From positions 1 through 46,146 of the forward strand of contig JBAJNM010000012.1 in the NCBI GenBank assembly GCA_036881865.1: a DNA stretch of 46,146 bases, given 5' to 3'. Positions 1 to 17,221 of the stretch are shown here, in pieces. Position numbers and translations under genes: made by a program. Each line of letters opens with the position of its first letter. The first letter of the stretch is position 1. A model generated the notes under the pieces. The model was not told the DNA's origin. It saw nothing but the letters and a program-made list of their open reading frames with translations, and made no database searches. Source of the stretch: Parvularculales bacterium. Lineage in GTDB: Bacteria > Pseudomonadota > Alphaproteobacteria > JAPOUT01 > JBAJNM01.

Positions 1-2256
1 CTCCCGTCATACTCTCCCCCTCGTCAAGAGGCAGGATGGCGGCCATGCCGTGTTGGCCGATATGATGCACGGTGCCATCTTCCGAGTGCGCCGTCTCGAG
101 GCTGAATGCCGCAAGACGGTCGTGCCGTCCTTCAAGGCTCAGAGCGCGCGGGGTTGTAACAAGACCCGGCAAAGATAACAGGAAGGGCGTATGATAGTCG
201 TCAAAGCCCGTCATGGAGCGTCCCACAAGAGCCAGCGAGAGCGCATCACCATAGGCGGCGCCGGCGGTAAGATGACTTCCTGCCAGAGGCAGCGAAACGC
301 CCCTCACGCTGTTGCCGAGGGCGGCCTGCATTTGCCCCAGAGGCCGCAAGGCGGCTTGCATATTCAGCAATCCCGCCCCGTAGATTGCGGCGTCGCTGAA
401 GTCGGTGCCTCCGTTTCCTGAGTAGTCGGTGTTGTCGGCGCTGTCCACCAGTCGTATGAGCACTTCCTCAAGACTGAGTGTCGGAAAGTGTTCAATCAGA
501 ACCGCAAGGGCACCGGAGACATGAGCCGCCGCAAAATCTACACCTGCTAAATCTAGTGAAAATCTCTCAGTGTCCAACCCCGCCACAACAATTTTTATAC
601 CGATTCCAGCTCGTTTAGAACTACCCGGTGCTGCGAGGCAATAGTGCCGTCCGGCATAGCCGGGGTCGTCTCTGTTTTCGATCCAGCCGTTAGGCAGAGT
701 GCCGCAACGGTTGGCGGAATCCATAATTTCCGCCGTTGAAGGATCTATGGGAGCATGACGCCTGTAGCGGGAGATGGTAAGATCGGACCCCGCCGTTACG
801 GCGGTGGCCGCCAGCCAGCGTCCCCGTAATTCATCAATGTGATAGGGCAGGCCGGCCAGAACGGCGGGGTGTGAGGAGTCATCTACGGTGCCCGGGGTCG
901 CGTGGGCCGGGTTGCCCTGATCGTCTCTCTCTTCTCCCGCCGACCATACATAGAGCGCTTTCTCCCCGGCGCGCAGTTCACCGTCAGCAATAGGTGTATC
1001 CGCTGCGGTTATAACGTCAGCGAATGCGGTACGCACCTCATCCTCAGTGTAGAGATCAATCGCGCCCACGACATACGTGAAAGTATGTTGTATCACCTGA
1101 GAGTTATGGGCCAGAAACTCGATATCCTTTACCAATGGCGAATCCGCATCAAGATCAAGAGTAGTCAGGTCGGTTGGAGCGTAATCTGCATTTTGAGGAG
1201 TTGATGTGTAAGGTCTGGGGCTGTTTGTATAATCTACGGCTAACCCGAGTATCTGCGCATCCGGCGCGATACCGACTACGGTATTGGATGTTCGTGTAGC
1301 GCCCATATTCCCCTTGGTCTGGTATTGTGCCGCTATTACGCCGGCAATGGCGGTGCCATAAAACGTATTGCCCAAGAGACTGAGGAAATAAAGTTCCGGA
1401 ATTCTCCAGACTTTCAGATACTCCCCCGGATTATCCGGATCAGCCTGCCGGATGTGTGTTTTGTCACTTTGGCAGTTTTGCATAAAATTGGCAATCCGGG
1501 CCGTATTCGATGTTCCCCAATTCGTACGACACAAATATTTTTCTATAAGATCTTTATGCGATTGACCGGCGGTCATTTCAATGTAGGCATCGGGGTCTGT
1601 GGGGAGCGATGTGTCAGCCGGATCGACGGGATAAGCCAGTATGCTGCGGTCGTGGAATCTGGCTTTGGTCAGATCAAAATGGGTATGATCAAAGCCCCCG
1701 GCGGCAATACCGACAGTCACGCCGGCTCCCGTTGCGTCCAGAGCCAGCGCATGTTCGGCTCTGATGGTGCGCAGGCCGAGTTGCTGTCCATACTCCCAGT
1801 ATTGGTCATTATCAATATCATAATCTGGGGGAGTCGAAGTGGAACCCGGGGGCGGTATGCGATACGAGACACCGGTTGAAATGTTCTCTGCCTCCGTGGT
1901 TGTTTCCGGCTCATGTGTTCCGAAGTCATTGGCCTCGACACCGGGTGCAGATTTGTTTCTGATATGCGTAGCGTCCACGGGTACCGGGGCGTTGGCAGGG
2001 ACATAATAGCTGTCGCCATCGGCCTCAGTGACCTCACAGCCATTCGGGGATGTACAGGTTTGGGGTGGTGGTATTGAAACGTTGAAGACCGAGCCGCCAC
2101 CGCCGCCGCAGGCCGCAAGAGAAGTCAGAGCAACAAAAAGCGCAAGCGGCGAGACCGCCGGACGCAGCTTCCTGAAATTTACGGCCCTGCCCCTGACAAG
2201 AGGCCACCCCCCCCCGCTTTTTGGCAGAAAACTGCCTTTATTTTCATAATCCTCAT
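1..2256 (-). CDS. Subtilisin-fold (S8) autotransporter-like lipoprotein, catalytically dead; 5' frameshift at a G9 tract; 3' end outside the window
   Basis: This reads as a surface or secreted S8-family protein of the autotransporter type with a lipoprotein signal (LTSLAAC followed by a Gly/Ser linker). One minus-strand frame has no stop from about 2317 to the window edge, over 700 codons. The S8 landmarks are in order: GVTVGIAAGGFD (Asp motif), YGTAIAGVIAA (HGTH motif), VVGIAPDAQILGLAV, WSAGEE (oxyanion AAGN motif), CLAAPG, and GVDFAAAHVSGA (GTSxAAPHVSGA motif). At the key positions Asp is Ala (1700-1702), His is Tyr (1358-1360), the oxyanion Asn is Glu (932-934) and Ser is Asp (536-538), so peptidase activity is not expected. 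The only well-placed start, ATG at 2256 behind GAGAAGGA, is one base out of frame with the body, and the shift maps to a run of nine G. A beta-barrel would lie beyond the left edge. The fold assignment is firm; the role is unknown. Confidence 0.8.
2207..2215 (-). repeat. Poly-G tract (nine G on the coding strand), candidate phase-variation switch
   Basis: Nine consecutive G on the coding strand lie between the ATG/RBS of the S8-like lipoprotein gene and its signal peptide. With nine G the ATG frame reaches a stop soon after the tract. With ten G (or seven) it joins the long frame that carries the lipobox and the S8 domain. Slipped-strand mispairing at such tracts switches surface proteins in several pathogens. 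A one-base assembly error in the homopolymer is the main alternative. Confidence 0.65.
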
Positions 2257-2264
2257 GCCGTATT

Positions 2265-2272
2265 TCCTTCTC
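2265..2272 (-). promoter_or_regulatory. Ribosome binding site that fixes the out-of-frame start
   Basis: GAGAAGGA lies eight bases upstream of ATG 2256 on the minus strand. No ATG or GTG exists in the long S8 frame before the lipobox. The only alternative in that frame is a TTG at 2293 without a good Shine-Dalgarno. This makes the ATG the likely true start. A TATAAT-like hexamer sits further upstream at 2352-2357 on the same strand, without a clear -35. Confidence 0.55.
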
Positions 2273-2455
2273 AAAAACAACAGACCGCAGCAACAGACCG
2301 GAAAATCCGGCGTGCAGTTATAGTGTTATCCCCGAAGATCGGGACGTATTTATTATATGCATGTACCCCCGGCGACACACTGCGCGACAGGTGTGGATAA
2401 TATCAGTCTACGCTAACCTGTCAATTCGGGTACCGGAAGTCGGAGCCCGGCTCGC

Positions 2456-3499
2456 CTAAGGTGCTCCTGCGGCTCTACCTCCGGTTGCGCCATCAGGAAA
2501 AGACGCCGATTCGGGGACAACGCCCGGCTCTCCGAACAGGACAATATTGCCGTCAGCTCCTTCCAGCACGGCGGAATAGCCCAGACGGTCCGGTCGGATA
2601 TAGGTCCGGAAACTATGGCCCCCGTCCTCGGAATAGGCGACGGCGCCACTCAGACCCGTCATGACGATCGTGCCGTTTGAAAGTTGTGTGGCACTCGCAA
2701 AAGACAGGGGAGCGCCGGTCGGGATATGTTTCCAGCTTCTGCCGTTATCATCGGTGCGGTAGGCATTGCCTCTCATGCCATGAACCAGAACCCCGCCGTC
2801 GGGCAAACCCATCCCGCCCCAGAATGACCCCTCGTAGGGTGTCTGGATCGTCTGAAACGTAGCACCGCCGTCGGAAGACTTGTATACCGTGCCAAATTCG
2901 GCGGCCACATAAATAGACCCGTCGCGGGCGCCAAACGCACCATTGAGATGAAGATCGTCATAAGGGTCTCCCGTCAGCGAACGTTCGGTCCACGTCCGGC
3001 CGCCGTCTTTCGTCTCCAGCACCAGACTAAACGCCCCCATGGCGAGCCCGTTGTTTTCATCCTCAAAATAAAGGGTCAGAACAGGCGCGTCCGATGACGG
3101 ACTGTTATGGAGCAATGTCCACGTATCACCGCCGTCAACGGTCTTGAGGATCGTCGTGTCATGGCCCGCCGCATAGCCTGTCTGCCCGCCCGGAAACGTC
3201 ACACTGGTCAACGTCACCTGTGTCGGAACACTGGAAGCCTGTGTCCATGTTTTGCCGTTGTCATCGGAATAAACCACATGGCCATGCTCGCCGACCGCCA
3301 CAAGCCGGTCACCGGAACGGGCCGCATCAAGAAGCAACGTTCTGGTGGCCAGATCCGATTGCAGCGCATGGCCCGTCGGCTGCGGTTGTGCCAGCGCTTG
3401 CGAAATCAGGACGGACGGGCCCGTCATCACAAGGCCCGTTGCCACAAGACCCACCACCACAAGACTCAACGTCAAATACAGGTTCTTCACACTCACCAT
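2456..3499 (-). CDS. Exported YCF48/BNR-type beta-propeller protein
   Basis: This is a predicted exported beta-propeller of the YCF48/HCF136-like, sialidase-repeat superfamily. The N-terminus has a hydrophobic segment followed by an SQALAQ-type cleavage site. Six Asp-box motifs are visible at regular spacing: SDDNGKTW, TVDGGDTW, TKDGGRTW, SSDGGATF, TDDNGRSW and SEDGGHSF. Plant and cyanobacterial relatives assist photosystem II assembly; proteobacterial members often accompany RND/MMPL-type transporters, but no transporter gene is visible here. I chose the ATG at 3499 because a GGAG lies just upstream; a GTG 15 bases earlier overlaps that site. It is co-oriented with the S8-like lipoprotein gene 200 bp downstream, so the two could share transcription. 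The substrate is unknown. Confidence 0.75.
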   Translation of the reverse strand: MVSVKNLYLTLSLVVVGLVATGLVMTGPSVLISQALAQPQPTGHALQSDLATRTLLLDAARSGDRLVAVGEHGHVVYSDDNGKTWTQASSVPTQVTLTSVTFPGGQTGYAAGHDTTILKTVDGGDTWTLLHNSPSSDAPVLTLYFEDENNGLAMGAFSLVLETKDGGRTWTERSLTGDPYDDLHLNGAFGARDGSIYVAAEFGTVYKSSDGGATFQTIQTPYEGSFWGGMGLPDGGVLVHGMRGNAYRTDDNGRSWKHIPTGAPLSFASATQLSNGTIVMTGLSGAVAYSEDGGHSFRTYIRPDRLGYSAVLEGADGNIVLFGEPGVVPESASFPDGATGGRAAGAP

Positions 3500-3916
3500 G
3501 ACACCACTCTCCACTCTCTTTTAGATTAAGGGTTCAGCATACGCCTCTTTATTATCCGCGCCAAGGCTGTTTTTTATCCGCACCGGAGCTGTTATAGTAA
3601 AATCAGATGCCTATATATAATAGTGAGCATGGCATAAGCTTCTTTTGTAGAATTCCGGCGGAGATATCATCCTCAAGCCGGACCAATCTGTGATGTTGGG
3701 AGGGTTAGGCACTCTGAGAGGGGAAAGCCCGCAACCAAACCATATCCATCAGCTCTCATGAAACCTAAATGTGGGGGTGAAAATCAGAAATATCACAAAA
3801 TATAAAAATGCAGAATTTCCTGGTTTTAGGGGGTATTATCGCCTTCTCAGGCTTCGCCAAATCATGTTATGATTCGCTTTGGTTTAAAAGCCTGCCCAAC
3901 CTGAAAAGAGTATAAA
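3500..3916. other. Intergenic region between divergent genes
   Basis: This 417-bp gap separates the minus-strand YCF48-like gene from the plus-strand AT-rich gene. It holds one copy of the 115-bp dispersed repeat and AT-rich DNA after it. A TATAAT on the plus strand at 3617-3622 could be a -10 element but has no convincing -35. I see no further gene. Confidence 0.6.
3689..3803 (+). repeat. Dispersed repeat, copy A
   Basis: This segment matches the reverse complement of 17686-17798 over about 115 bp. Conserved blocks are TGTGATGTTGGGAGGG, a purine-rich stretch, ATATCCATC(A/G)GCTCTC, CCTAA followed by TGGGGGTG, and CACAAAATAT at the end. The internal spacing differs by a few bases. Both copies hold a short frame that starts ATG TTG GGA GGG and stops after 21-22 codons, but the codons between are not conserved, so a structured RNA or element end is likelier than a peptide gene. 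Confidence 0.7.
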
Positions 3917-4510
3917 TTGTCTAATTCAAGTTCAAACACAACAATCGATTCAAATTCAAATGCAACAATAGATTTTCTAATTGGAGCAGGATTAGAAGGT
4001 TTAGTAGAAGCAATTGTAATTATTGGTATTGGTTTGTTAGCGTTGGTGTTTTTCAAATGGCCTGTGGTGTGGTCTGATTTAAAGAAAATTATAAAAGAAT
4101 GGGATCAGGTCTCTAAAGATGTCCATACCATTAAGGTTTTTTTACAAACCAAATATCCAGAGGTAGCACTTTTTCAATCAAAAAGTCCGTTAGCCTTAAC
4201 GGAAAGCGGACAAAATATAGCTAGTACTATAGGTGCTGACACTATTGCTGATGCTTATATGGAACAAGTGGCTATTTCAAGAGAAATGAACCCCTATGAA
4301 ATACAAGTAACTTGCTTTGATTTTGCTGAAAAATCCTTAATATCAAAATTAGATGCAAAAACAAAAACAAAAATAGAAACAGAAGCATTTGAGCGTGGAC
4401 TGGAAGTTGAAAACATTCTTAAGATAATTGCTATTGTTATAAGAGATAAGTTTCTTTCCCAACGTGGCTATGTCCCTACACAGATAGACGAACACGACCC
4501 CCATAAATAA
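3917..4510 (+). CDS. AT-rich membrane-anchored protein of unknown function
   Basis: I do not recognise a functional family. The 197-residue product has a Ser/Asn/Thr-rich N-terminus of about 18 residues, one strong hydrophobic segment (roughly residues 20-46) and a soluble, mainly helical C-terminal part. The stretches SPLALTESGQ and YEIQ...CFDFAEKSLISKL...IVIRDKFLSQRG look like conserved helical blocks. The start is a TTG behind AAAAGAG, with no better in-frame ATG before the membrane segment. Base composition is clearly AT-richer than the neighbours, and a hexamer repeat of the form CAAAAA occurs three times near 4362. Together with the dispersed repeat just upstream, this suggests recent acquisition. 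Confidence 0.6.
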   Translation: MSNSSSNTTIDSNSNATIDFLIGAGLEGLVEAIVIIGIGLLALVFFKWPVVWSDLKKIIKEWDQVSKDVHTIKVFLQTKYPEVALFQSKSPLALTESGQNIASTIGADTIADAYMEQVAISREMNPYEIQVTCFDFAEKSLISKLDAKTKTKIETEAFERGLEVENILKIIAIVIRDKFLSQRGYVPTQIDEHDPHK

Positions 4511-4695
4511 GGGCTTTTTTATGTTAGGGCCAACTGGTGGCTTATCAATATTGAGCCTCTTTTCTTTCTTTTTAGTGGCTGGTTTCATGATGATGGTAGT
4601 TTTTATCAGATAACAGAGGTTTTTTTGGGCCATTTTGGGCGCTTTTATATGTAAGCCCCTAAAATTCAGGCGGAACACCAGATGGGAGACATCCG

Positions 4696-5916
4696 ATGGA
4701 TATGTCAGACAGCCCCGCCATACGCTCTTTCAGGGAACAGGTGCGGGACTTCCTTGCCACCAACCGCAGCAAAGCCCCCTCCGGCATGAGCGGGAGCAAT
4801 CACGGGCAGGCCATGGACTGGCAACGGCTCCTGATTGAAAACGGCTATGCCGCCCGCACCATTCCCGAAGAATATGGCGGCTTCGGCGCAGAGCCCGATC
4901 CGCTGGCCTCTCTGGTGATTGCCGAAGAGTTCACCGCCGCCGGTGTGCCCATGGGGTTTTCCAATCAGGGGATCTCCATGCTGGTGCCGACATTGCTGGA
5001 GATGGGAACGGAAGAGCAGAAGAAAAAATATATACCGCCGACCCTGCGCGGAGAAATGGTGTGGTGTCAGGGCTATTCGGAGCCCGGGGCGGGGTCGGAC
5101 CTTGCCAGTCTGCGCACCAGGGCGACCGATGACGGTGATGATTTTCTCGTCAACGGACAAAAAATATGGACCAGTACCGCTCATGCCGCCCACATGATGT
5201 TCTGCCTTGTGCGGTCGGAGCCCGATGCGCCCAAACATGAAGGCATCAGCTATGTGCTCATCCCCATGGACACCCCCGGCCTTGAGGTGAGGCCGTTGAA
5301 AACCATGACGGGGCACGCCGAATTTAACGAGGTCTTTTTCACCGATGTGCGCGTTCCCAAAACGCAGACTGTCGGGAAGCGGGGCGAGGGCTGGCGGGTC
5401 GCCAACGCTACCCTGAAGCATGAGCGCGGCATGCTGGGAGACCCCGATGCGACCGGTGCGCGCTTCAGGGCTCTGGTGGACCTCATGAATAATGAACAGG
5501 TTAACGGTGTCCGGCTGATGGACAGCCCCGTTCTCCGCGACAGGCTGCTGGCCCTTCAGGGACGCGTCATGGCGATGCGCTATAACGGCCTGCGGCTCCT
5601 CTCGGCGCGCACCAAAGGCGGTGGCGGTCAGGGAGGAGCGGGCGCACGCATGGCGGGGCTTATTGTAAAGTTGCAGGGCTGCGAACTTAACCATCAGATT
5701 TCGGCGCTGGCACTGGACGCCCTGGGCGAATTCGGCCTTCTGTACGGCGCACCCGATGAGCGAATGCGCAACAAGGGGCAATGGCAATGGGCCTATATGT
5801 TCCAGCTGGGGCTGATTATCGGCGGCGGGACGGCGCAGATTCAAAAGAACATCATAGCCGAGCGCGGTCTTGGCATGCCCCGCGAGCCCAAAGTCCGGAA
5901 GCCGGACCAGAAGTAA
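4696..5916 (+). CDS. Acyl-CoA dehydrogenase (large-subunit, FadE/PimC type)
   Basis: This flavoenzyme is predicted to introduce a 2,3-double bond into an acyl-CoA thioester and pass electrons to ETF. Family features are the QGYSEPGAGSDLASL loop, the VNGQKIWTS motif that contacts FAD, the FFTDVRVP segment, and a C-terminal IIGGGTAQIQKNIIAERGLG that matches the FAD/dimer loop. In that loop the residue that is the catalytic Glu in medium-chain enzymes (YEGTxQIQ) is Gly. This is common in heteromeric or side-chain-specific dehydrogenases, where the base lies elsewhere or in the partner. A GGGAGA ribosome site precedes the ATG. A likely partner is the second dehydrogenase at 11006, now about 5 kb away. 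The substrate is unknown; steroid, bile-acid-like or dicarboxyl side chains are family precedents. Confidence 0.85.
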   Translation: MDMSDSPAIRSFREQVRDFLATNRSKAPSGMSGSNHGQAMDWQRLLIENGYAARTIPEEYGGFGAEPDPLASLVIAEEFTAAGVPMGFSNQGISMLVPTLLEMGTEEQKKKYIPPTLRGEMVWCQGYSEPGAGSDLASLRTRATDDGDDFLVNGQKIWTSTAHAAHMMFCLVRSEPDAPKHEGISYVLIPMDTPGLEVRPLKTMTGHAEFNEVFFTDVRVPKTQTVGKRGEGWRVANATLKHERGMLGDPDATGARFRALVDLMNNEQVNGVRLMDSPVLRDRLLALQGRVMAMRYNGLRLLSARTKGGGGQGGAGARMAGLIVKLQGCELNHQISALALDALGEFGLLYGAPDERMRNKGQWQWAYMFQLGLIIGGGTAQIQKNIIAERGLGMPREPKVRKPDQK

Positions 5917-5962
5917 AGTCCCGCGACACAAAATCCGCCCCCGAACGCAGAAAGGCAGGACA

Positions 5963-6048
5963 TTAGGGAACACTAAAATTGGGGAAACTATAGCCCTGTG
6001 TACGCAAACAGCATCATTTAGGGACTGATATACTTAGGGAACTATATA
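5963..6048 (+). repeat. Four imperfect TTAGGGAACTATA-type direct repeats
   Basis: Copies start near 5963 (TTAGGGAACACTA), 5979 (TTGGGGAAACTATA), 6018 (TTAGGGACTGATA) and 6034 (TTAGGGAACTATA). They flank the 20-bp cassette-end repeat. They could be protein-binding sites, but the copies are degenerate. Confidence 0.4.
5993..6012 (+). repeat. 20-bp cassette-end repeat, copy 1
   Basis: GCCCTGTGTACGCAAACAGC occurs here, 76 bp after the acyl-CoA dehydrogenase stop, and identically at 9610-9629, 36 bp after the lnt stop. In both places an antitoxin gene of the same family follows. It marks the left limit of a duplicated unit. Confidence 0.7.
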
Positions 6049-6185
6049 CCTGATTACCCAAAACCCCGTTTTTTGAGGGTTTACCTTGAGTTTTTCGGAG
6101 ATTTTTGTCAGGTTATTTTTTCAATATTTTGGTTAATTTTTGCCATTATTGCGCAGTTTTCCGCGGTTTTTTGCGATTGTAATAA

Positions 6186-6211
6186 TGTCAAATATTTTTT
6201 ATAAATTGACA
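6186..6211. promoter_or_regulatory. Inverted repeat TGTCAA/TTGACA upstream of antitoxin copy 1, candidate operator
   Basis: TGTCAA and TTGACA are separated by an A/T-only spacer, about 40 bp before the antitoxin start. A related GTCAATT/AATTGAC repeat sits upstream of the second antitoxin. Autoregulated toxin-antitoxin operons usually carry such sites, so this is a plausible operator. Binding is inferred. Confidence 0.4.
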
Positions 6212-6250
6212 TAGATTGACCCTAGACGCTAGCGACACGGAGCCCGGTAC

Positions 6251-6520
6251 ATGGCCAGCATAAAACCAAAGAATAGTCATGCTTCTATATTCGGAAAGTT
6301 TTCCGGTCTGCGCAGAGTTGCAGCCGCCGCACGGCGCTATATTCTTGACTCCGGTGAGCAATATTCCGGGCTTGAAGAACAGAGCGAGGTAACGGAAATT
6401 GTCCTGACCGAAGAGGACGCCCGTGCGTTTGACGCGTCCTTTGACGAACCTCCTTCTCTGACGCCGGGTGCGATTAAAGCCGCCGAGGCCTACCGGCGGC
6501 TCGTCAAAAGAGCTGAATAA
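6251..6520 (+). CDS. Orphan TacA/DUF1778-like antitoxin, copy 1
   Basis: The 89-residue protein shares its C-terminal half with the product at 10093: EQSEVTEIVL(T/S)EEDAR.F.AS followed by a Pro-rich turn and KAAEAYRR. This resembles the toxin-neutralising tail of DUF1778 antitoxins, which wrap around GNAT toxins. The N-terminal 45 residues (MASIKPKNSHASIFGKFSGL...) do not look like the ribbon-helix-helix expected in that family. An ACGGAGCC ribosome site, shared with copy 2, lies upstream. The toxin that should follow is only a fragment, so this is an orphan antitoxin. It may still neutralise the toxin encoded by the intact copy. Confidence 0.65.
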   Translation: MASIKPKNSHASIFGKFSGLRRVAAAARRYILDSGEQYSGLEEQSEVTEIVLTEEDARAFDASFDEPPSLTPGAIKAAEAYRRLVKRAE

Positions 6521-6644
6521 AATCAGCGTTGTTGAGATTGAAAAATGGGATCCGGCGCGACATGATCGCTCCGGGTTTGATTGCGGCGTGGGCGGGCTGA
6601 ACAATTTTCTACAAATAATGTGCCGACATCACACAACAACGTGA
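6501..6644 (+). pseudogene. Truncated GNAT toxin remnant
   Basis: In the frame overlapping the end of the antitoxin, the sequence encodes WDPARHDRSGFDCGV followed by GLNNFL, nearly identical in DNA to 10383-10444 of the intact toxin gene. No ATG or GTG start is present, and similarity stops at about 6611. The frame then runs into unrelated sequence and ends at a TGA inside the 27-bp repeat that begins the small-exported-protein unit. All acetyl-CoA-binding motifs are missing, so it cannot be active. Confidence 0.75.
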
Positions 6645-6657
6645 ACCGCATTTGATG
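6631..6657 (+). repeat. 27-bp direct repeat, copy 1
   Basis: A 27-bp sequence beginning ACACAACAACGTGAACCGCA is identical at 7335-7361. The copies lie about 185 and 90 bp upstream of the two paralogous exported-protein genes. They delimit a tandem duplication unit of about 704 bp. The first copy also marks where the truncated toxin gene loses homology. Confidence 0.8.
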
Positions 6658-6756
6658 AGGCCACCATGAGATTATTGCTATATTGACAACCATCGGAGTA
6701 ACGAATCTTTGGCGCAAAGTTCTGATTACCCGGCACTAATAACTTAGGGCCTCCCG

Positions 6757-6789
6757 AAAAAAATGCTCAACCGCAGGTTGCGGTTGAGC
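6757..6789 (-). terminator. Hairpin with minus-strand T-run
   Basis: GCTCAACCGCA and TGCGGTTGAGC form a perfect 11-bp stem around a GGT loop. Read on the minus strand the stem is followed by ATTTTTTT, the form of an intrinsic terminator. No minus-strand gene lies close by, so it may insulate the locus from antisense transcription or act as an RNA structure in the leader of the plus-strand gene at 6842. Confidence 0.5.
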
Positions 6790-6841
6790 GCAGCGAAACT
6801 ACTCCGCAAGGGGTATAAAAACTAAATAAGGAGACAGCATA

Positions 6842-7234
6842 ATGAAAACGCTAACAACTTTTGCCGCCACTCTTGTGATGGCGTTTGCCCTTAGCGGACC
6901 CGCTCAGGCAATGGATGAAATTTTTGAGAATGTAAATACGGATTGGCTGGGTGACGGTTCTTTTGAACTCATCGAGGATTTGAGTTTTAATCTTGTCACT
7001 CCCGCTCATGCCGGCCAGATCGGAGAAGGATTCAAAAATGAGTTCGACAGCTGGGGCAATGCCATAGAGGATTGGTGGGCCGGACCCAACGCCCTGCTGG
7101 GTGAACTTGAGGAGATTAACGCAGTTTCTCCTGCTCATGCAATCGGTGACCTGGGCTCCTGCGTCTTTGCAGAGTGCGCGGGCCGTGAGGACGAATATAT
7201 CGGAGACTTTCTTGTGCCTGCCGACGAGCGGTAG
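6842..7234 (+). CDS. Small exported protein with PAHA-separated segments, paralogue 1 (130 aa)
   Basis: I recognise no known family. A clear Sec signal peptide (residues 1-23, ending SGPAQA) precedes an acidic mature region. Within it, TPAHA (about residues 53-57) and SPAHA (about 96-100) repeat the Pro-Ala-x-Ala pattern of the signal cleavage site. They divide the mature part into three segments: MDEIFENVNTDWLGDG..., a 43-residue Trp-rich piece (GQIGEGFKNEFDSWGN...), and IGDLGSCVFAEC with two Cys. The gene has a strong AAGGAGA ribosome site and a strong terminator after it. The paralogue at 7450 lacks exactly the middle segment. Secretion is well supported. Processing into separate peptides is a speculation based only on the repeated motif. 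Confidence 0.75.
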   Translation: MKTLTTFAATLVMAFALSGPAQAMDEIFENVNTDWLGDGSFELIEDLSFNLVTPAHAGQIGEGFKNEFDSWGNAIEDWWAGPNALLGELEEINAVSPAHAIGDLGSCVFAECAGREDEYIGDFLVPADER

Positions 7235-7261
7235 ACGCAACGATTGCAAACACCGGACAGA

Positions 7262-7302
7262 TAAAAAAACGGCAAGCCGGATATCCGGTTTGCCGTTTTT
7301 TT
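7262..7302. terminator. Strong bidirectional Rho-independent terminator
   Basis: ACGGCAAGCCGGAT pairs with ATCCGGTTTGCCGT (one G-T wobble) to give a 14-bp stem flanked by AAAAAAA and TTTTTTT. It lies 28 bp after the stop of the first exported-protein gene and can stop transcription in both directions. Confidence 0.9.
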
Positions 7303-7334
7303 GTGGTCCCGCATCAAATCCGGGCATCTAAACT

Positions 7335-7361
7335 ACACAACAACGTGAACCGCATTTGATG
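7335..7361 (+). repeat. 27-bp direct repeat, copy 2
   Basis: This is identical to 6631-6657. It lies between the first exported-protein gene's terminator and the second gene, as expected for the junction of a tandem duplication. Confidence 0.8.
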
Positions 7362-7449
7362 GACCATTGTATAGATGATGCGATAAGGTAATAATCAATG
7401 GTGTGCCGAAACCCTAACATCCGGCATTAAAAAACGAAGGAGATAAACT

Positions 7450-7713
7450 ATGAAAACGTTAACAACTTTTGCTTCTGCTCTTGTCATGGCATTTGTCCTT
7501 AGCGGACCTGCTCATGCAATGGATGAAATTTTTGAGAATATAAATACGGACTGGCTGGGTGACGGTTCCTTTGAACTCATCGAGGATTTGAGTTTTAATC
7601 CTGTCACTCCCGCTCATGCAATCGGTGATCTGGGCTCCTGCGTTTTTGCAGAGTGCGAAGGTCGTGAAGACGAATATATCGGAGACTTTCTTCTGCCCGC
7701 CGACGCGCGGTAG
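7450..7713 (+). CDS. Small exported protein with PAHA-separated segments, paralogue 2 (87 aa)
   Basis: This is a close paralogue of the upstream gene: same signal peptide (MKTLTTFA...SGPAHA), same first segment and same C-terminal segment with two Cys (GSCVFAEC), ending in an acidic tail. It lacks the 43-residue middle segment. The difference is exactly 129 nt and lies between two copies of CC(C/T)GCTCATGC, so it is explained by in-frame recombination at short repeats (loss here or gain in the other copy). A near-consensus AAGGAGAT precedes the ATG, and a terminator follows. Function is unknown. Confidence 0.75.
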   Translation: MKTLTTFASALVMAFVLSGPAHAMDEIFENINTDWLGDGSFELIEDLSFNPVTPAHAIGDLGSCVFAECEGREDEYIGDFLLPADAR

Positions 7714-7778
7714 GGACACCGCAGGGGCTGTGCAAGGGTGCCGGCTCCGGTAGCGGTTCCATCTTCCGGGAATTCTTT

Positions 7779-7819
7779 AGGAGTGTTGGCTGCACTTGCG
7801 GCCGGCACTCCTGTTTTTT
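7779..7819 (+). terminator. Rho-independent terminator
   Basis: AGGAGTG pairs with CACTCCT, with an inner GGC/GCC extension, and the stem is followed by GTTTTTT. It ends transcription of the second small exported-protein gene, 66 bp after its stop and before lnt. Confidence 0.75.
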
Positions 7820-7896
7820 AGGCAGCCTGTTCTCCGGAGAGAGGTTTGGGTCCCCCCGGATAGGGAATGACCCTCACATAATATAATATTGTTGTC

Positions 7897-9573
7897 ATGA
7901 TCTTGACTTCACTCGCAAGCCGCACCGGCAACTTACGGGGCTATTGGGCCTGGCTGTCGGCCTTTGTCATGGGAGCGGGGTGTATTCTTGCCTTCGCCCC
8001 TTTTCATTTTCTGCCCGTACTCCCCGTCTGCCTGTGTGTGACGGTCTGGCTGCTGGACGGATGCGCATCCCCCACACCACGGCAAACGGCCCGGCGCACC
8101 CTTGCCGTTTCCTGGGCTTTCGGCGCAGGCTTCTTTATTGCCGGATGTCACTGGACTCTCAATGCTTTCGTCATCGTTTTTGACGAGTACCGGTGGCTCT
8201 TCATTTTTCCCCTGTTTTTCATGCTGGTTGCCCTGCCCGCTTTCTTCGTTGCCGCCTGTCTCACCGCCCGACTGTTCTTCTGGCAGAGCGGGCCCGGACG
8301 CATTCTCGCTCTGGCGTCGCTGTTCACTCTTGCCGACTGGGTACGCGGACATGTCGTCTTTAACGGATTTCCCTGGAACCTTCTGGGCAACAGTCTGACC
8401 GCCGTGCCGCCGTGGGCGCAGCTGGCTTCCCTTGTCGGAGTTTACGGACTCACTTTTCTTTGCGTCCTGTTCGCCCTCACGCCTGCCCTGTTTGCCGACG
8501 GAAGGGGTGTCCCGTACCGTACAGGACGTCTCACACGATGGATTGCCACACCCCTTTTGATAATGATGGCCGCCGGTGCGTGGGTGTGGGGGGCGCATCA
8601 TATAAAAGCCGTAACACCACCCACGGAAGACTCTCTTGCCGTCCGTATGGTGCAGCCCAACTTTTCACAGGAGTACAAGAAGAACCGCGACAACATCGTC
8701 GAGATGGCAAACTCGCTCCTGCGCCAGAGTTTCTTTCCCGGCACGCATCCCGATCTCGATTCCGGTGGCGGTCCCGATGACGGTTCCAATGGTGATTCCA
8801 ATGGCGATGCAAAACAGCCGACGCCGCCGGTTGTCATCTGGCCCGAAACCGCCCTGCCCGTCTATATGGAACGCGAACCCACGCTACTCAAGCGCCTTGC
8901 AACCTATCTGCCCGAAGGCGGCCGGCTGCTGACAGGGTCTGCGCGGCTTAATGCCGGTGACCCTCTGGGACGCTCCTCCAACTCTCTGCTGGTCATTAAT
9001 GATCGTGGTGACATTGAAACCTTCTACGACAAGCGGTTTCTCGTGCCTCTGGGTGAATATCTCCCTCTCAGGGGACTGATGCGCCGGCTTGGTGTTGACG
9101 CTTTGGCATGGCGCGGGGGCTACGCCGAGGGAACCGGCCCGCCCGTCCTTCCGCTGGGCGGCCTTCCCGATGTGGGCGTTCTGATCTGCTACGAATCCAT
9201 CTTTACCGGTGACATCCTTCAGGCCGGCGGGCGTCCCGAATGGCTCCTGAATATATCCAATGACGCATGGTTCGGTGATTTCATGGGTCCCTGGCAGCAT
9301 TTCGACCATGCCGTCCTGCGCACCATTGAAGAAGGACTCCCCATGGTCCGTGTCGCCAACACCGGCATCTCAGCATTGATCGACCCCTATGGGCGTGTCC
9401 GCGCCATGCTGGGAGTCAACCGGCGCGGCAATCTTGATGTTCGCCTGCCCGCACCCCTGCCGCCGACACTCTTCTCGCGCTGGGGAGATATTCCCGCACT
9501 CACCATAAGCCTGCTGGTGTTGCTTCTTCTGGCGGGAACCGCGAAATTCACCCGCCCAAAAACACGGCCGTAA
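7897..9573 (+). CDS. lnt: Apolipoprotein N-acyltransferase
   Basis: Lnt adds the third acyl chain to the N-terminal Cys of lipoproteins in the inner membrane. The first ~220 residues contain several membrane segments, then a nitrilase-fold periplasmic domain and a final membrane segment. The catalytic triad of the family is visible: Glu in VVIWPETALP, Lys in FYDKRFLVPLGEYLP and Cys in VGVLICYESIF. An unusual low-complexity insert rich in Gly/Asp/Ser/Asn (DLDSGGGPDDGSNGD...) sits in the nitrilase domain before the Glu motif and contains a short tandem DNA repeat near 8784. Total length (558) is somewhat above the usual ~510. A TATAAT at 7882-7887 is so close to the ATG that the mRNA may be almost leaderless; I see no Shine-Dalgarno. 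Confidence 0.95.
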   Translation: MILTSLASRTGNLRGYWAWLSAFVMGAGCILAFAPFHFLPVLPVCLCVTVWLLDGCASPTPRQTARRTLAVSWAFGAGFFIAGCHWTLNAFVIVFDEYRWLFIFPLFFMLVALPAFFVAACLTARLFFWQSGPGRILALASLFTLADWVRGHVVFNGFPWNLLGNSLTAVPPWAQLASLVGVYGLTFLCVLFALTPALFADGRGVPYRTGRLTRWIATPLLIMMAAGAWVWGAHHIKAVTPPTEDSLAVRMVQPNFSQEYKKNRDNIVEMANSLLRQSFFPGTHPDLDSGGGPDDGSNGDSNGDAKQPTPPVVIWPETALPVYMEREPTLLKRLATYLPEGGRLLTGSARLNAGDPLGRSSNSLLVINDRGDIETFYDKRFLVPLGEYLPLRGLMRRLGVDALAWRGGYAEGTGPPVLPLGGLPDVGVLICYESIFTGDILQAGGRPEWLLNISNDAWFGDFMGPWQHFDHAVLRTIEEGLPMVRVANTGISALIDPYGRVRAMLGVNRRGNLDVRLPAPLPPTLFSRWGDIPALTISLLVLLLLAGTAKFTRPKTRP

Positions 9574-9609
9574 TGCCGGCGAGATAGAGACCTAATACAT
9601 GGAACTAAT

Positions 9610-9629
9610 GCCCTGTGTACGCAAACAGC
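9610..9629 (+). repeat. 20-bp cassette-end repeat, copy 2
   Basis: This is identical to 5993-6012. It again lies shortly after an unrelated housekeeping gene and upstream of an antitoxin of the same family. Confidence 0.7.
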
Positions 9630-9645
9630 TTAAAGCCCTGGCATA

Positions 9646-9762
9646 ATGCAGGGACAGCCCTCCTCGCGGGTCACTGTTCCGGATGCCCCGCCGGAAGAGG
9701 TGGCAAAGGCATTTTTTTCCAACGTGAAAAAACCTGATCCGGAATTACGTCGGGTTAAATAG
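9646..9762 (+). CDS. Possible 38-residue protein
   Basis: The open frame encodes MQGQPSSRVTVPDAPPEEVA followed by KAFFSNVKKPDP and a basic end. The composition looks protein-like, with an amphipathic helix after the PDAPPEE turn. There is no convincing ribosome site, and no counterpart in the first cassette. Its stop codon lies inside the left arm of the palindrome at 9754. It could be the intact 3' part of a lost gene. Confidence 0.3.
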   Translation: MQGQPSSRVTVPDAPPEEVAKAFFSNVKKPDPELRRVK

Positions 9763-9780
9763 TCCGGTGGACTATTTAAC
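9754..9780. repeat. Perfect 12-bp inverted repeat with GGT loop
   Basis: GTTAAATAGTCC and GGACTATTTAAC are exactly complementary around a 3-nt loop. No T-run follows on either strand, so it is not a standard terminator. It could be an operator, an RNA stem or an element end. Confidence 0.7.
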
Positions 9781-9785
9781 GGGAG

Positions 9786-9837
9786 AATTGAAGGGTTTTG
9801 GTAGCTTGGCTGGTCTAGCGTATAAGCTCCTTCAATT
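9786..9837. repeat. Inverted repeat AATTGAAGG / CCTTCAATT
   Basis: Two 9-bp arms are separated by 34 bp, immediately after the previous palindrome. The enclosed sequence has no coding appearance. The two structures together would form adjacent stems in a transcript. Confidence 0.5.
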
Positions 9838-9927
9838 TTATGTCAATATTGCCATTTTAGCGCAGCTTCCTGCGGATTTTCGAGATTAGCACGTTTGACA
9901 GAGGGGTTGACACTCCGGTCGGCCGAT

Positions 9928-9951
9928 GTCAATTATATTTTACAAATTGAC
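9928..9951. promoter_or_regulatory. Inverted repeat GTCAATT/AATTGAC upstream of antitoxin copy 2, candidate operator
   Basis: The 7-bp arms and A/T-rich spacer resemble the repeat at 6186-6211 in the first cassette. Further TTGACA-like words lie at 9911 and near 9964. Preservation in both cassettes suggests an autoregulatory site; no binding data can be read from sequence. Confidence 0.4.
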
Positions 9952-10092
9952 CATGGTCGATTCTTGACAACTCTAAACACCCCTAAACCCCTAAAATTTA
10001 CCGTAGAAGGCTATCAGCTACTAAAAAGTAAAGAAAAACTAAAACTAAAAACATTGAATAGCCCCGTGGGCTAACGACACGGAGCCAGACAC

Positions 10093-10353
10093 ATGACTAA
10101 CATAAAACCAAAAACTGCAAATGATTATACATTTGGAATATTTTCCAAAATAGCTGAAGCTGTTGCTATCAGACTACGCTTTGTGAATGCTCGCGATCCT
10201 GAGCCCGCAGAACAGAGTGAGGTAACGGAAATTGTACTGAGCGAAGAGGATGCTCGCCTGTTTGAAGCGTCCCTTGAAAATCCTTCTCCTCCAACACGTC
10301 GTGCGGTTAAGGCTGCAGAAGCCTATCGGCGGCGTGTCAAAAGTGCCGCCTAA
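10093..10353 (+). CDS. TacA/DUF1778-like antitoxin, copy 2 (intact module)
   Basis: The 86-residue product is the presumed antitoxin of the acetyltransferase toxin encoded next. Its C-terminal half (SEVTEIVLSEEDARLFEASL, then a Pro-rich turn and KAAEAYRRRV) fits the toxin-binding tail of DUF1778 proteins. The N-terminal half (MTNIKPKTANDYTFGIFSKI...) lacks a recognisable ribbon-helix-helix. The gene overlaps the likely toxin start by 11-20 bases, the usual arrangement for coupled translation. Antitoxin-first order and small size support the assignment. Confidence 0.75.
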   Translation: MTNIKPKTANDYTFGIFSKIAEAVAIRLRFVNARDPEPAEQSEVTEIVLSEEDARLFEASLENPSPPTRRAVKAAEAYRRRVKSAA

Positions 10354-10888
10354 AGACAGCCCTCTCACTATTGAAGATTGGGATCCGGCGCGACATGATC
10401 GCTCCGGGTTTGATTGTGGCGTAGCCTCATTGAATAATTTTCTGGCTCAAACTGCCAAGAAACAACAACAACACGATATGACGAAGGTTTATGTCGCTGT
10501 TACGGGGGGAGAGGTCAAAATCCTTGGCTATCATGCTATCAATGTTGGCATAATGAATGCAGTAAACTTGGCAAATAAACCCAGAGGAACACCAACGCAT
10601 GGCGAAATCCCCGTTCTTTTTCTTAGTCGAGTCGCGGTTGACCAACAAGTGCAAGGGCAGGGCATTGGTGAGATTCTGATGCACCACGTATTTGAAAAAG
10701 CCTGTCTAATAGCGGATGAGGCCGGTTGCTATGCAGTGGTGTTAGATGTCATGTCCGACGGTGGTGACACTGCCTTTGCAAAACGCAAGAAGTGGTATGA
10801 AGAATTCGGCTTCCACAGTTTTTCAAAAAAACCTGCACGGATGTTTATGAACATGAAAGAAATCCGCCAACTGGTTACTCAGGCCTAA
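10334..10888 (+). CDS. GNAT-family toxin (TacT-like tRNA acetyltransferase)
   Basis: Toxins of this family acetylate the amino group of aminoacyl-tRNAs and stop translation. Family landmarks are FDCGVASLNNFL near the N-terminus, ILGYHAI, VPVLFLSRVAVD-like strand (IPVLFLSRVAVDQ), the acetyl-CoA pyrophosphate loop QGQGIGE, and WYEEFGF, whose Tyr matches the conserved catalytic position. Start choice is GTG 10334 or GTG 10343, both inside the antitoxin gene; an ATG at 10250 would add unrelated residues. The length (about 184) is slightly above the usual 160-175. The complete motif set suggests it is active. Confidence 0.85.
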   Translation: MSKVPPKDSPLTIEDWDPARHDRSGFDCGVASLNNFLAQTAKKQQQHDMTKVYVAVTGGEVKILGYHAINVGIMNAVNLANKPRGTPTHGEIPVLFLSRVAVDQQVQGQGIGEILMHHVFEKACLIADEAGCYAVVLDVMSDGGDTAFAKRKKWYEEFGFHSFSKKPARMFMNMKEIRQLVTQA

Positions 10889-11005
10889 CCTGTCATAATA
10901 AGGATGCGCCGTTATCCTTTAATAAGAAAATATATAATTAAAGGATATTTTAGGGTATAAAAACTCTATAATTCTCCCGATTATTATATCTTTTGGACAA
11001 ATTTC

Positions 11006-12130
11006 ATGTATTTCGGACTCAGTGAAGACCAGACACTTTTTCAGGATAGCCTAACCCGCTATCTGGCGGAAGCCTCTCCCCCTGAGGTGGTGCGCGGTGC
11101 CGCAGAGGCGGAAACATCCGGTGATGCGTGGGCGGCCACCGAAGTCTTACGCCGCGGTCTTGCCGATATGGGCGCGTTCGGCATTCTCATACCGGAGCAC
11201 TATGGCGGTGCGGGCCTTGGTGTGCTGGATGCCGCCCTGGTTGCCGAAACACTGGGCGGGGCGGCGGCGCCGGTTCCCTTTACGGCAATGGCAGTGATGG
11301 CGCCTCTGGCGTTGATGTTGACGGGCAGTGATGAACAAAAAGAACGCTGGCTTCCCCGCTGTGCTGCGGGTGAAGCTTATATCGGTGTCGGGGTAACGGA
11401 AACTTTCGGACGCCGTGACGGAGGGGGACTGACGGCGGCCTCCGATGAAACTCTTACGGGGTCGGCCTATTTTGTACTGGACGGCGTCAACGCCGATGCT
11501 TTTATCGTGGCGGATACCGGCGGGCAGTTTTATCTGATTGAAGCGGGAGCGGCTGGGCTTGAGATTACCCCCCAGATTACCATTGACCGAACACGGGGGT
11601 TTTGTTCCCTGTCGTGTACGGCAACACCGGCCTCCCGCCTGCCCGGCAATGCGCCGCTCCATAACATGATCGCTGCCGGACGCGTTGTGCTCGCTGCCGA
11701 TACGCTGGGGGCCGCTCAAACCATGCTCGACAAAGCCGTTGACTATGCCGGTGAGCGGGAGCAGTTCGGACGTATTATTTCTTCTTTCCAGTCGGTCAAA
11801 CATTTATGTGCGGAGATGGCCGCCGAGATTGAGCCGTTACGCTCTCTTGTCTGGTATGCCGCTCACGCCCGGGACGCCGTGACCCGTGATGACGGTGATG
11901 ACGGCAACCATGACGCACAAATCGCCGCCGCTCATGCAAAGGCGTTAAGCGGTGAAGCCGGGCGGTTTGTTGCCCGCACCGCAACGGAAGTCCATGGCGG
12001 CATCGGCTTTACCGACCTTCTGGGTTTGCATTTCTGGTTTAAGCGTATCGGGGCCAACCGCCAGTTGCTCGGAGGACCGGAACAGGTTCGCGAAGAAGCC
12101 GCCCGTCTGCAAGGCTGGCTCGCCGCCTGA
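11006..12130 (+). CDS. Acyl-CoA dehydrogenase (small-subunit type)
   Basis: This protein has the acyl-CoA dehydrogenase fold: an N-terminal helical domain (EDQTLFQDSLTRYL), a GILIPEHYGGAGLG loop, a middle beta domain that is less conserved than usual (GVTETFGRRDGG in place of TEP..GSD), and a C-terminal four-helix domain with EREQFGRIISSFQSVKH and HGGIGFTDLLGLHFWFKR. The divergent middle domain fits the small subunits of heteromeric dehydrogenases such as PimD or mycobacterial FadE pairs. A partner of large-subunit type is at 4696. A TATAAT at 10967-10972 could serve as its own -10. It probably acts in degradation of branched, dicarboxylic or ring-derived acyl-CoAs; the exact substrate cannot be told. 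Confidence 0.85.
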   Translation: MYFGLSEDQTLFQDSLTRYLAEASPPEVVRGAAEAETSGDAWAATEVLRRGLADMGAFGILIPEHYGGAGLGVLDAALVAETLGGAAAPVPFTAMAVMAPLALMLTGSDEQKERWLPRCAAGEAYIGVGVTETFGRRDGGGLTAASDETLTGSAYFVLDGVNADAFIVADTGGQFYLIEAGAAGLEITPQITIDRTRGFCSLSCTATPASRLPGNAPLHNMIAAGRVVLAADTLGAAQTMLDKAVDYAGEREQFGRIISSFQSVKHLCAEMAAEIEPLRSLVWYAAHARDAVTRDDGDDGNHDAQIAAAHAKALSGEAGRFVARTATEVHGGIGFTDLLGLHFWFKRIGANRQLLGGPEQVREEAARLQGWLAA

Positions 12131-12290
12131 AGATACATTTTATTTTTACAATTAAGTAAAAAATTCCCGATAAAGTTTTCAATATTTCAGGAGACAACAT
12201 TGGTTACAAGATTTTTTTTAGAGCGCTGAAAAATCCCTGAAAACAAGCGGCTTTTAGCCGTATACTCCAACCTCCGATGGTTAAATAAAT

Positions 12291-12320
12291 TTGACAGATT
12301 CCTGATACTATTGACATATT
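12291..12320 (+). promoter_or_regulatory. Possible sigma-70-type promoter
   Basis: TTGACA at 12291-12296 is followed after 18 bases by CATATT. The putative start would lie about 20 bp before the GGAGGA ribosome site of the small gene at 12348. The -35 is exact and the -10 is approximate. Confidence 0.35.
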
Positions 12321-12347
12321 ACGGTAAGAGCCTTGGAGGATAGTAAT

Positions 12348-12614
12348 ATGAGCAATCTGGAAAAAGAGTATGAAGCCTACAAGAAACTGCTTCCGGCATT
12401 GCTTGGTAGCGATGGCTCAGGAGAGGGAAAGTACGCCCTAATTATAGGCGATCAACATATCGGTACATACGTTGCCTATGAAGACGCTCTTCAGGAAGGT
12501 TACGAAAAAGCTAAACTTGGCCCGTTTATGGTGAAAAAAATATCTGGTAATGATAACATTTCCTACTTTTCCAGAGATATAGACGGGTCATGTCACACTT
12601 CTCCGTCCAAATAA
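12348..12614 (+). CDS. Small protein coupled to a retropepsin-like protease
   Basis: The 88-residue product begins MSNLEKEYEAYKKLLPALLG and contains KYALIIGDQHIGTYVAYEDA followed by a helix and LGPFMVKKI. This resembles the short beta-beta-alpha-beta domains (DUF5678-like) found beside other genes; I cannot assign a function. I chose the ATG behind GGAGGA; a TTG 15 bases earlier would overlap that site. Its last 25 bases overlap the start of the protease gene, so the two are translated together and probably interact or share regulation. Confidence 0.65.
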   Translation: MSNLEKEYEAYKKLLPALLGSDGSGEGKYALIIGDQHIGTYVAYEDALQEGYEKAKLGPFMVKKISGNDNISYFSRDIDGSCHTSPSK

Positions 12615-13036
12615 CTGAAAAAGGTCCAATTTTATGGGCGTATGTTGGTGTAAGTGCACACCGACATAAAGCGCTACGAGATGCCGGCCAGCCCGTTCCA
12701 AACCATAGAGTGGCAAACATTCTTGTTGATACAGGCGCGACTTCGACGTGCATAGATCAAAGCGTCATTAATCAATTATCAATTCAGCCAACCGGTGTTG
12801 GTTTTATAAATACACCATCCTCCGGCGATACTCCTCATATGGTGAACGTATATGATATTTCTATGACTATCACAGGAGCCGATGGTACAAGTCCCCATAA
12901 AATTTCTACTTTGCGTGTTAATGAATCTAATTTACACGCTTCGGGTATCGATGGTCTGTTAGGACGAGATGTTTTATCAAGATGCCATATGACATATGAA
13001 GGATATGGTTCTCAAATGTACCTGACTTTCTTTTGA
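12590..13036 (+). CDS. Retropepsin-like aspartic protease
   Basis: The 148-residue protein has the single-domain retropepsin pattern: ANILVDTGATSTCID carries the catalytic Asp-Thr-Gly, and DGLLGRDVLSRC matches the conserved (I/L)LGRD(F/V)L strand near the C-terminus. Proteins of this size act as homodimers with one Asp from each subunit. No signal peptide or membrane segment is seen, so it is likely cytoplasmic. The natural substrate is unknown; the overlapping small protein upstream is the first candidate. Composition is less GC-rich than the flanking metabolic genes. Confidence 0.8.
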   Translation: MSHFSVQITEKGPILWAYVGVSAHRHKALRDAGQPVPNHRVANILVDTGATSTCIDQSVINQLSIQPTGVGFINTPSSGDTPHMVNVYDISMTITGADGTSPHKISTLRVNESNLHASGIDGLLGRDVLSRCHMTYEGYGSQMYLTFF

Positions 13037-13078
13037 TTTTTTTAGGGGTTGTATGTACCGGCCGCCTTCTAAATCTGT

Positions 13079-14041
13079 CTACTTCCCGGATAAATTCTGC
13101 TCCAGCAAAAACGTCTGCACGGCGGCAGCGCTTTCGTCCGGTATTTCTTCCATGGCAACATGGCCGATGTCGTTGTAAATGACGAGTTCCGCATCCGGTA
13201 ACGCCTGCTTCATGGCATGGGCCGAGGCAACCGGAATGAGATTGTCCTTCTCGCCCCACAAAATAAGAGCGGGAATGCGGAGTTCACCAAGACGGCTATC
13301 CAACGGCTCGCGGTCGGCGTAAGACGCAAACCGTGCCATGGTTGCCCGCCGGTTGCCGGGATATAAAGAGAGGTCATAATAACGGTCAATCATCTCGCCG
13401 GTTACAAGAGCATCATCTTCGATAGAATGTTTTAATCCGTCCTCCACCAGTGAGCGCGGCAATATATAAGACAGAATATCCCTGATGACAGGAATGGAGG
13501 CCAGACGAAACACAAGAGGGGTATCTTCTTCTCCCGTACGCGGCATACCACCCGATGACACCAGAACCAGCGCCGTGACCGCGCCCGGATTTTCCAACGC
13601 GTACAAAAGTGAAATTCCCCCGCCCATGGAATTACCACCCAGCGCAAAATGTTCAAGATTGAGCCCTTCGGTGAACTCTTCCAGAAACGCGACCATGCCC
13701 TCCTGAGAATAATCGTCCGCCGGCGTTGTCCCCGTTAAGCCATGACCCGGCATGTCCACCGTAATCAACCGGAACCTTTCCCCAAGACGCTCCACCCACG
13801 GCTCCCACGCATGAAGTGATGAATTGGAACCGTGAATAAGCACCAGAGGCGGACCTTCGCGGTTGCCCTGATCCCGGTAATGGGCCACCGCGCCGCTCGG
13901 CAGAAAGAGATAGCTGGAAGCATCCCCTCCATAACGCGCCCGCAACTCATCGGGTGATTTGTCAAACCGCACCAAAGCCACACCGGCAAAAATGATAATT
14001 GCCAGCAGGATGATGCCGGAAATGATAACAAGGCGTTTCAT
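13079..14041 (-). CDS. Membrane-anchored alpha/beta hydrolase
   Basis: An N-terminal hydrophobic segment (residues ~4-26) anchors an alpha/beta-hydrolase domain. The oxyanion HG dipeptide (LVLIHGSNSS), nucleophile elbow GNSMGG, acid in GEKDNLIP and His in GHVAMEE form a complete catalytic set. The cap region is long. Start ATG 14041 follows GAGGAG; an upstream GTG would overlap that site. It is divergent from the lactonase gene and close to a Baeyer-Villiger-type monooxygenase gene, so an ester or lactone substrate is plausible. Confidence 0.85.
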   Translation of the reverse strand: MKRLVIISGIILLAIIIFAGVALVRFDKSPDELRARYGGDASSYLFLPSGAVAHYRDQGNREGPPLVLIHGSNSSLHAWEPWVERLGERFRLITVDMPGHGLTGTTPADDYSQEGMVAFLEEFTEGLNLEHFALGGNSMGGGISLLYALENPGAVTALVLVSSGGMPRTGEEDTPLVFRLASIPVIRDILSYILPRSLVEDGLKHSIEDDALVTGEMIDRYYDLSLYPGNRRATMARFASYADREPLDSRLGELRIPALILWGEKDNLIPVASAHAMKQALPDAELVIYNDIGHVAMEEIPDESAAAVQTFLLEQNLSGK

Positions 14042-14134
14042 AAGTGATCTCTCCTCATCCACTATACCTCACGCTGGACGCCGAAGGCTACAGCGGCTAA
14101 CATATTGAATAAAACAGGGAGACAGGTAAAGCCT

Positions 14135-15220: not shown

Positions 15221-15229
15221 GATAATTCA

Positions 15230-15250
15230 GGCTCCATATTTTTTGGAGCC
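15230..15250. terminator. Hairpin between convergent genes
   Basis: GGCTCCA and TGGAGCC form a 7-bp stem with a T-rich loop in the 45-bp gap between the convergent lactonase and monooxygenase genes. There is no T-tail, so termination is plausible but weakly supported. Confidence 0.35.
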
Positions 15251-15265
15251 CGGCCGCAAGGCCCG

Positions 15266-17201: not shown

Positions 17202-17221
17202 AGTCAGATCTGTACCTGTGT

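What the first reader, a model, noticed from the sequence alone, without database searches (positions are those of the whole stretch)
2207..2256. Nine-G tract places the start codon of the surface lipoprotein out of frame: possible phase-variable switch
ATG 2256 has a good ribosome site but is one base out of frame with the S8 body, and the only place the frames can be joined is the homopolymer. Ten or seven G restores one continuous protein. This is the architecture of slipped-strand contingency genes, which are little documented in free-living alphaproteobacteria.
Basis: partly seen in the sequence, partly recalled or inferred. Interest (0 to 1): 0.72.

Follow-up and report, generated by a model that had tools for sequence, protein, structure and literature searches.

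The report
Possible G-tract switch, dead-protease surface lipoprotein
A run of nine G's sits between a good start signal and a surface lipoprotein gene and leaves them one base out of step; this could be a random on/off switch, because sister genomes of the same bacterial order carry dozens of such runs in the same position, but for this gene switching itself is unproven.

Summary
On the minus strand, G9 (2207-2215) lies between ATG 2256 (Shine-Dalgarno AAGGA, strong promoter match at 2424-2397) and a lipoprotein signal (Cys 2110-2108). With nine G's, ATG 2256 gives a 25-aa peptide; the S8 body runs one frame away, open for 735 codons to the contig end. Alone, a G9 is weak evidence: the genome holds 11 bacterial G/C runs of 9 or more (20-41 expected), and long genes such as ftsK stay in frame across theirs. 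TTG 2293 is an in-frame start at nine G's, without a ribosome site. S8 paralogues start near the Cys and have no tract. New evidence favours the switch: same-order genomes G002 and G003 carry 16-17 tracts of 13-21 G/C each (about 0.2 expected), between SD-ATG and signal peptides of Slam-type lipoproteins, in other large outer-membrane ORFs, at DNA methyltransferases and in promoter spacers, with in-frame and out-of-frame paralogues. G001 has the same layout with G15. The window protein has lost the catalytic triad (pseudoprotease). A mitochondrial contig binned with the genome suggests an animal, probably sponge, host rather than free living. Phase variation of this gene: about 50%.

The parts
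2207..2215 (-). G9 homopolymer (nine C on +); frame joint between ATG 2256 and the S8 body
2179..2256 (-). ORF from ATG 2256: MRIMKIKAVFCQKAGGGGLLSGAGP*, 25 aa as assembled; candidate 'off' product
2265..2269 (-). Shine-Dalgarno AAGGA, 8 nt before ATG 2256
2397..2424 (-). sigma-70-like promoter TTGACA-16-TATTAT, 11 of 12, TG before -10
   Evidence: consensus match only
2..2293 (-). S8 (subtilase-fold) lipoprotein frame, open from TTG 2293 through the G9 to the contig end (764 aa from TTG; 3' end missing)
2108..2206 (-). 32-residue stretch WPLVRGRAVNFRKLRPAVSPLALFVALTSLAA followed by the lipobox Cys (2110-2108) and GGGGG: signal peptide with extended n-region
1700..1702 (-). position of the catalytic Asp, here Ala (A198)
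1358..1360 (-). position of the catalytic His, here Tyr (Y312)
932..934 (-). position of the oxyanion-hole Asn, here Glu (E454)
536..538 (-). position of the nucleophile Ser, here Asp (D586)

Best explanation
A translational contingency switch of the neisserial type on a NalP-like (lipidated, S8-fold, probably autotransporter) but catalytically dead surface protein. A promoter at about 2400 makes an mRNA whose ribosome site and ATG 2256 lie 41 nt before a G9. Replication slippage changes the G count. With nine G the ribosome ends after 25 codons (off, the assembled state); with 10 or 7 it reads on through an extended n-region, the signal peptide and lipobox into the S8 body (on). Shown: sequence anatomy, frames, loss of catalytic residues, and the same layout at long tracts in sister genomes. 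Inferred: that ATG 2256 is the real start, that the tract varies in the population, surface display, and a role as adhesin, antigen or decoy.
For: SD-led ATG and a promoter match directly upstream. No start codon in the window where the intact lipoproteins of this genome start, 17-30 residues before the Cys. Long constrained ORF: 735 codons without a stop, dN/dS 0.35-0.57 against paralogues. Sister genomes of the order: 16 (G002) and 17 (G003) G/C runs of 13 or more, about 0.2 expected. Many sit 12-51 nt after an SD-led ATG and before an n-region plus signal peptide: Slam-type lipoproteins L157, L159, L160, L161, L166, L189 (three in frame, three out) and the family L155, L163-L165 (three in, one out). 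Near-identical copies differ in tract length and frame: L175/L176 14 vs 13, right flank 97% identical; L174/L185 14 vs 15, right flank 93%. G001 L172: ATG-52 nt-G15-signal peptide of an ORF over 665 aa, the same layout as here. The known NalP of Neisseria meningitidis is a lipidated subtilase autotransporter switched by a poly-C tract (PMC5472700), and tracts of 7-9 G/C vary in gonococci (PMC5320596). G000 has a SlipAM/Slam homologue.
Against: No length variation seen at this locus. G9 is a length that chance gives in this genome, and the genome shows no excess; of its other internal G/C runs, only the G13 at C1:12882 is long. The S8 paralogues have no tract. Codon usage between ATG 2256 and the tract favours the S8 frame (6.9) over the ATG frame (-3.1), weakly. 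An in-frame TTG start exists. Loss of all catalytic residues also fits decay.
Confidence: 0.5

Rival explanations
1. The tract is a neutral part of the coding sequence. The gene starts in the S8 frame upstream of it (TTG 2293) or at a non-canonical codon near the lipobox (CTG, 20 residues before the Cys), and nine G (three Gly codons) is simply the in-frame length.
For: S8 frame open upstream of the tract for 26 codons, with a codon score like true genes (10.2). G/C runs of 9-10 lie in frame inside long ORFs of this genome, ftsK confirmed by Pfam and others read by eye as rho, valS and parC. MRPAVSPLALFVALTSLAAC would match the 20-21 residue signals of paralogues L002 and L003.
Against: TTG 2293 has no SD and would give 61 residues before the Cys; 25% of open frames upstream of genes score as high. 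CTG is a rare start and the AGGAAG before it is too close. The ATG-SD would be left without a function.
Confidence: 0.25
2. A decaying paralogue: the normal start codon near the lipobox was lost by substitution, the active site is gone, and the frame break at G9 is part of the decay.
For: All four active-site positions changed, unlike L002 and L003. dN/dS to L002 0.51 against 0.35-0.40 among the other paralogues. Truncated relatives of the same signal cassette exist at C60 and C86.
Against: 735 codons without a stop despite about 50% protein divergence (chance 5e-13 for random codons). Promoter match and SD intact. dN/dS is below 1.
Confidence: 0.15
3. Assembly or consensus error: the true tract has ten G and the gene is simply on, with no special switching.
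For: Short-read consensus can miscount homopolymers (PMC8808543). The contig comes from a draft assembly that holds a foreign contig.
Against: Other runs of 9, 10 and 13 in this assembly keep their genes in frame. Illumina errors are mostly reported above 14 bases (PMC8808543).
Confidence: 0.1

Closest known systems
NalP (AspA) of Neisseria meningitidis, phase-variable lipidated subtilase autotransporter
   Same: S8 fold, lipobox, large surface-type protein, homopolymeric G/C tract that sets the frame (PMC5472700)
   Different: Here the catalytic triad is lost, the tract lies before the signal peptide, it is a G9, the 3' barrel region is not on the contig, and switching is not demonstrated
Poly-G/C contingency genes of Neisseria and Campylobacter (translational on/off type, e.g. 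pilC poly-G)
   Same: Tract at the 5' end, one of three lengths gives the full protein; lengths of 7-13 are used (PMC5320596)
   Different: An uncultured alphaproteobacterium; one candidate of this kind in this genome and no genome-wide excess, although sister genomes have a large excess
EprS / fusolisin family autotransporter serine peptidases (NCBIfam NF051851, NF033865)
   Same: Weak similarity over the S8 domain
   Different: Far below the families' cut-offs; active site lost

Membership tests
Slipped-strand contingency (phase-variable) gene | Homopolymer or SSR placed so that its length sets the frame of a downstream ORF | tested here: met
   Frames of ATG 2256 and the S8 body join only at G9; TTG 2293 is a possible bypass
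Slipped-strand contingency (phase-variable) gene | Tract length varies between cells or strains | not testable with these tools
   No reads; no other genome of the family is held
Slipped-strand contingency (phase-variable) gene | Tracts longer or more frequent than chance in the genome | tested here: not met
   11 bacterial runs of 9 or more against 20-41 expected in G000; met strongly in G002 and G003
Slipped-strand contingency (phase-variable) gene | Gene product of the usual class (surface protein, modification enzyme) | tested here: met
   Lipoprotein signal and S8 domain
Active peptidase family S8 | Asp-His-Ser triad and oxyanion Asn | tested here: not met
   Ala, Tyr, Asp and Glu at the four positions; L002 and L003 keep all four
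S8 fold family (PF00082) | Profile match over the domain | tested here: met
   PF00082 4.4e-13, 49.6 bits against cut-off 21.8
NalP-type autotransporter lipoprotein | C-terminal beta-barrel domain | not testable with these tools
   Contig ends inside the gene; paralogue L003 ends in Phe, as barrels do, but has no Pfam barrel hit
NalP-type autotransporter lipoprotein | Lipobox signal peptide | tested here: met
   LAAC followed by GGGGG after a hydrophobic stretch, by sequence; no signal predictor was run

The most novel reading that the evidence does not exclude
An order of host-associated alphaproteobacteria uses a neisserial-style repertoire of poly-G/C switches on Slam-type lipoproteins, inverse autotransporters, DNA methyltransferases and promoters, and the window gene is its member in a third family: a phase-variable NalP-like pseudoprotease serving as adhesin, antigen or decoy.
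Probability: 0.35. Interest if true: 0.72.

Novelty: new member of a known kind. Interest (0 to 1): 0.55.

Why it matters
Poly-G/C contingency repertoires are known mainly from mucosal pathogens such as Neisseria and Campylobacter. Text searches here found little for Alphaproteobacteria (a limited library). If sister genera of this symbiont-like order switch surface lipoproteins, invasin-like barrels and methyltransferases at random, animal symbionts face selection like that on pathogens, and reads from host tissue would show it directly.

Tried and rejected
Close homologues for a tract-length comparison: none in the family, order search gives only distant S8 domains, class search (385 genomes) only G003; two genome-contig scans and one viral-contig scan found nothing. 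Genome-wide excess of G tracts in G000: rejected. Codon usage to decide the start: weakly for the S8 frame, not decisive. C34 tracts as bacterial contingency loci: rejected, the contig is mitochondrial and its genes are intact under code 4. The G24 at the start of C84: set aside as a contig-end artefact. Tracts near the 5' ends of ftsK and gltB: housekeeping genes with open frames, probably chance. Programmed -1 slippage on the G run was considered; nothing here tests it. No structure was predicted, because the active-site alignment answered the question.

Full report
What is there. The minus strand carries, in order: a sigma-70-like promoter (2424-2397, 11 of 12 with TG before the -10), an SD AAGGA (2269-2265), ATG 2256, G9 (2215-2207), 32 residues that end in a hydrophobic stretch, and a lipobox Cys (2110-2108) followed by five Gly, then an S8-fold body to the contig end. 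The window begins at the end of contig C12 of a 2.33-Mb, 89-contig assembly, so the 3' end of the gene is missing. As assembled, ATG 2256 yields 25 aa; the S8 frame is open from TTG 2293.

Is the tract more than chance? By length, no. G/C runs of 9 or more are expected 20-41 times in this genome; 14 are present, of which two lie on a mitochondrial contig and one at a contig end. Runs of 9-10 lie in frame inside long genes (ftsK by Pfam). By setting, it stands out: among about 38 runs of 8 or more it is one of two with an SD-led ATG within 70 nt and a very long downstream ORF in another frame, and the other lies inside a gene.

Where should the gene start? Intact lipoproteins of this genome start 17-30 residues before the Cys. 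In the window that stretch has no ATG, GTG or TTG. The candidates are ATG 2256 (good SD, wrong frame at nine G), TTG 2293 (right frame, no SD) and CTG 20 residues before the Cys. Codon usage leans to the S8 frame upstream of the tract but does not decide.

The protein. Aligned with its paralogues L002 and L003 and with distant relatives, the window protein has Ala, Tyr, Asp and Glu where they have Asp, His, Ser and Asn of the S8 active site. It is a pseudoprotease. The ORF is nevertheless free of stops for 735 codons, and dN/dS to paralogues is 0.35-0.57, slightly relaxed.

The sister genomes. A search of the order for G9 led outside the window. G002 and G003 (one genus) carry 16 and 17 runs of 13 or more G/C, about 0.2 expected; of 385 genomes sampled from the class, 292 have none. 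The tracts are not scattered. Six lie 12-17 nt after an SD-led ATG and before an extended n-region and a lipobox (L157, L159, L160, L161, L166, L189); L157 matches TbpB_B_D, and L157 and L189 weakly match Slam-dependent lipoproteins; three are in frame with the ATG and three are not. Four belong to a second large family (L155, L163, L164, L165). A third group are ORFs that look like inverse autotransporters (L153 and L184 confirmed by Pfam IAT_beta; L174-L176, L181, L183, L185, L186 by similarity of sequence). Others lie at DNA methyltransferases (L178, L188), in a Type ISP restriction gene (L187, in frame) and between TTGAC and TATAAT-like elements before secreted proteins (L162, L173, L179). 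Near-identical copies differ by one G and by frame (L175/L176, L174/L185). These are the classes of gene that contingency loci usually control. G001, in a third family, has ATG-52 nt-G15-signal peptide on an ORF of over 665 aa (L172), the layout of the window gene.

Reading. Kinship and anatomy favour a switch; the short tract, the lack of excess in this genome, and the TTG alternative keep it near even odds. The closest known system is NalP (PMC5472700), and tracts of 7-9 are within the varying range in gonococci (PMC5320596). It works like a contingency gene on paper; membership is not established because length variation could not be tested.

Lifestyle. Contig C34 is a complete mitochondrial genome of animal type (cox1, cox2, cox3, cob and nad genes, an atp9-like gene, both rRNAs, 24 tRNAs, all on one strand, code 4; protein names read by eye). 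From general knowledge this fits a demosponge best, although the 52% GC is unusual for one. It was binned with the bacterium, so a host-associated life is more likely than a free one. G000, G002 and G003 have a SlipAM homologue, in line with surface lipoprotein export.

Noticed in passing
G000:C34 (L089) 1-19573: Complete mitochondrial genome of animal (probably sponge) type in the assembly; readable under code 4; a foreign contig that hints at the host.
   Followed up: partly
window 1700-1702, 1358-1360, 932-934, 536-538: All four S8 active-site positions replaced in the window protein; paralogue L004 has Asp to Asn; G002/G003 relatives have Glu-Glu near the Asp position.
   Followed up: partly
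G002 (L153-L169), G003 (L173-L189): Large repertoire of 12-21 nt G/C tracts at surface-protein, methyltransferase and promoter positions, with in-frame and out-of-frame copies.
   Followed up: partly
L178 (G003:C43), L188 (G003:C132), L177, L187: G15-G18 tracts at the start of or inside DNA methyltransferase / restriction genes: possible phasevarions in an alphaproteobacterium; L178 combines N6_N4_Mtase with an HNH domain.
   Followed up: partly
L162, L173, L179: G12-G14 between TTGAC and TATAAT-like elements: possible promoter-spacer switching.
   Followed up: no
G000:C1:12882-12894 (L051): G13 in the signal-peptide region of a 145-aa secreted ORF without a Pfam match, in frame as assembled; the longest internal tract of this genome.
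   Followed up: partly
window 33779-33787: Second run of nine (C on +) in the window, near the 5' end of ftsK, in frame or upstream of the start.
   Followed up: partly
G000:C60:446-577, G000:C86:10597-10654: Short ORFs that share the window's signal-peptide/lipobox DNA (78-81% identical) but not the body: shuffled or truncated signal cassettes.
   Followed up: no
G000 contigs C12, C43, C72 ends: Three contigs break inside S8 paralogues, so the family may be a repeat that the assembly could not cross.
   Followed up: no
Other alphaproteobacteria rich in runs of 13 or more G (for example G075, G210, G220, G344, G349); some, such as G139, have them only at contig ends and are artefacts.
   Followed up: no
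G002 locus L011: An S8 relative with no start codon near its lipobox and a 51-residue leader from the nearest ATG; no tract.
   Followed up: no
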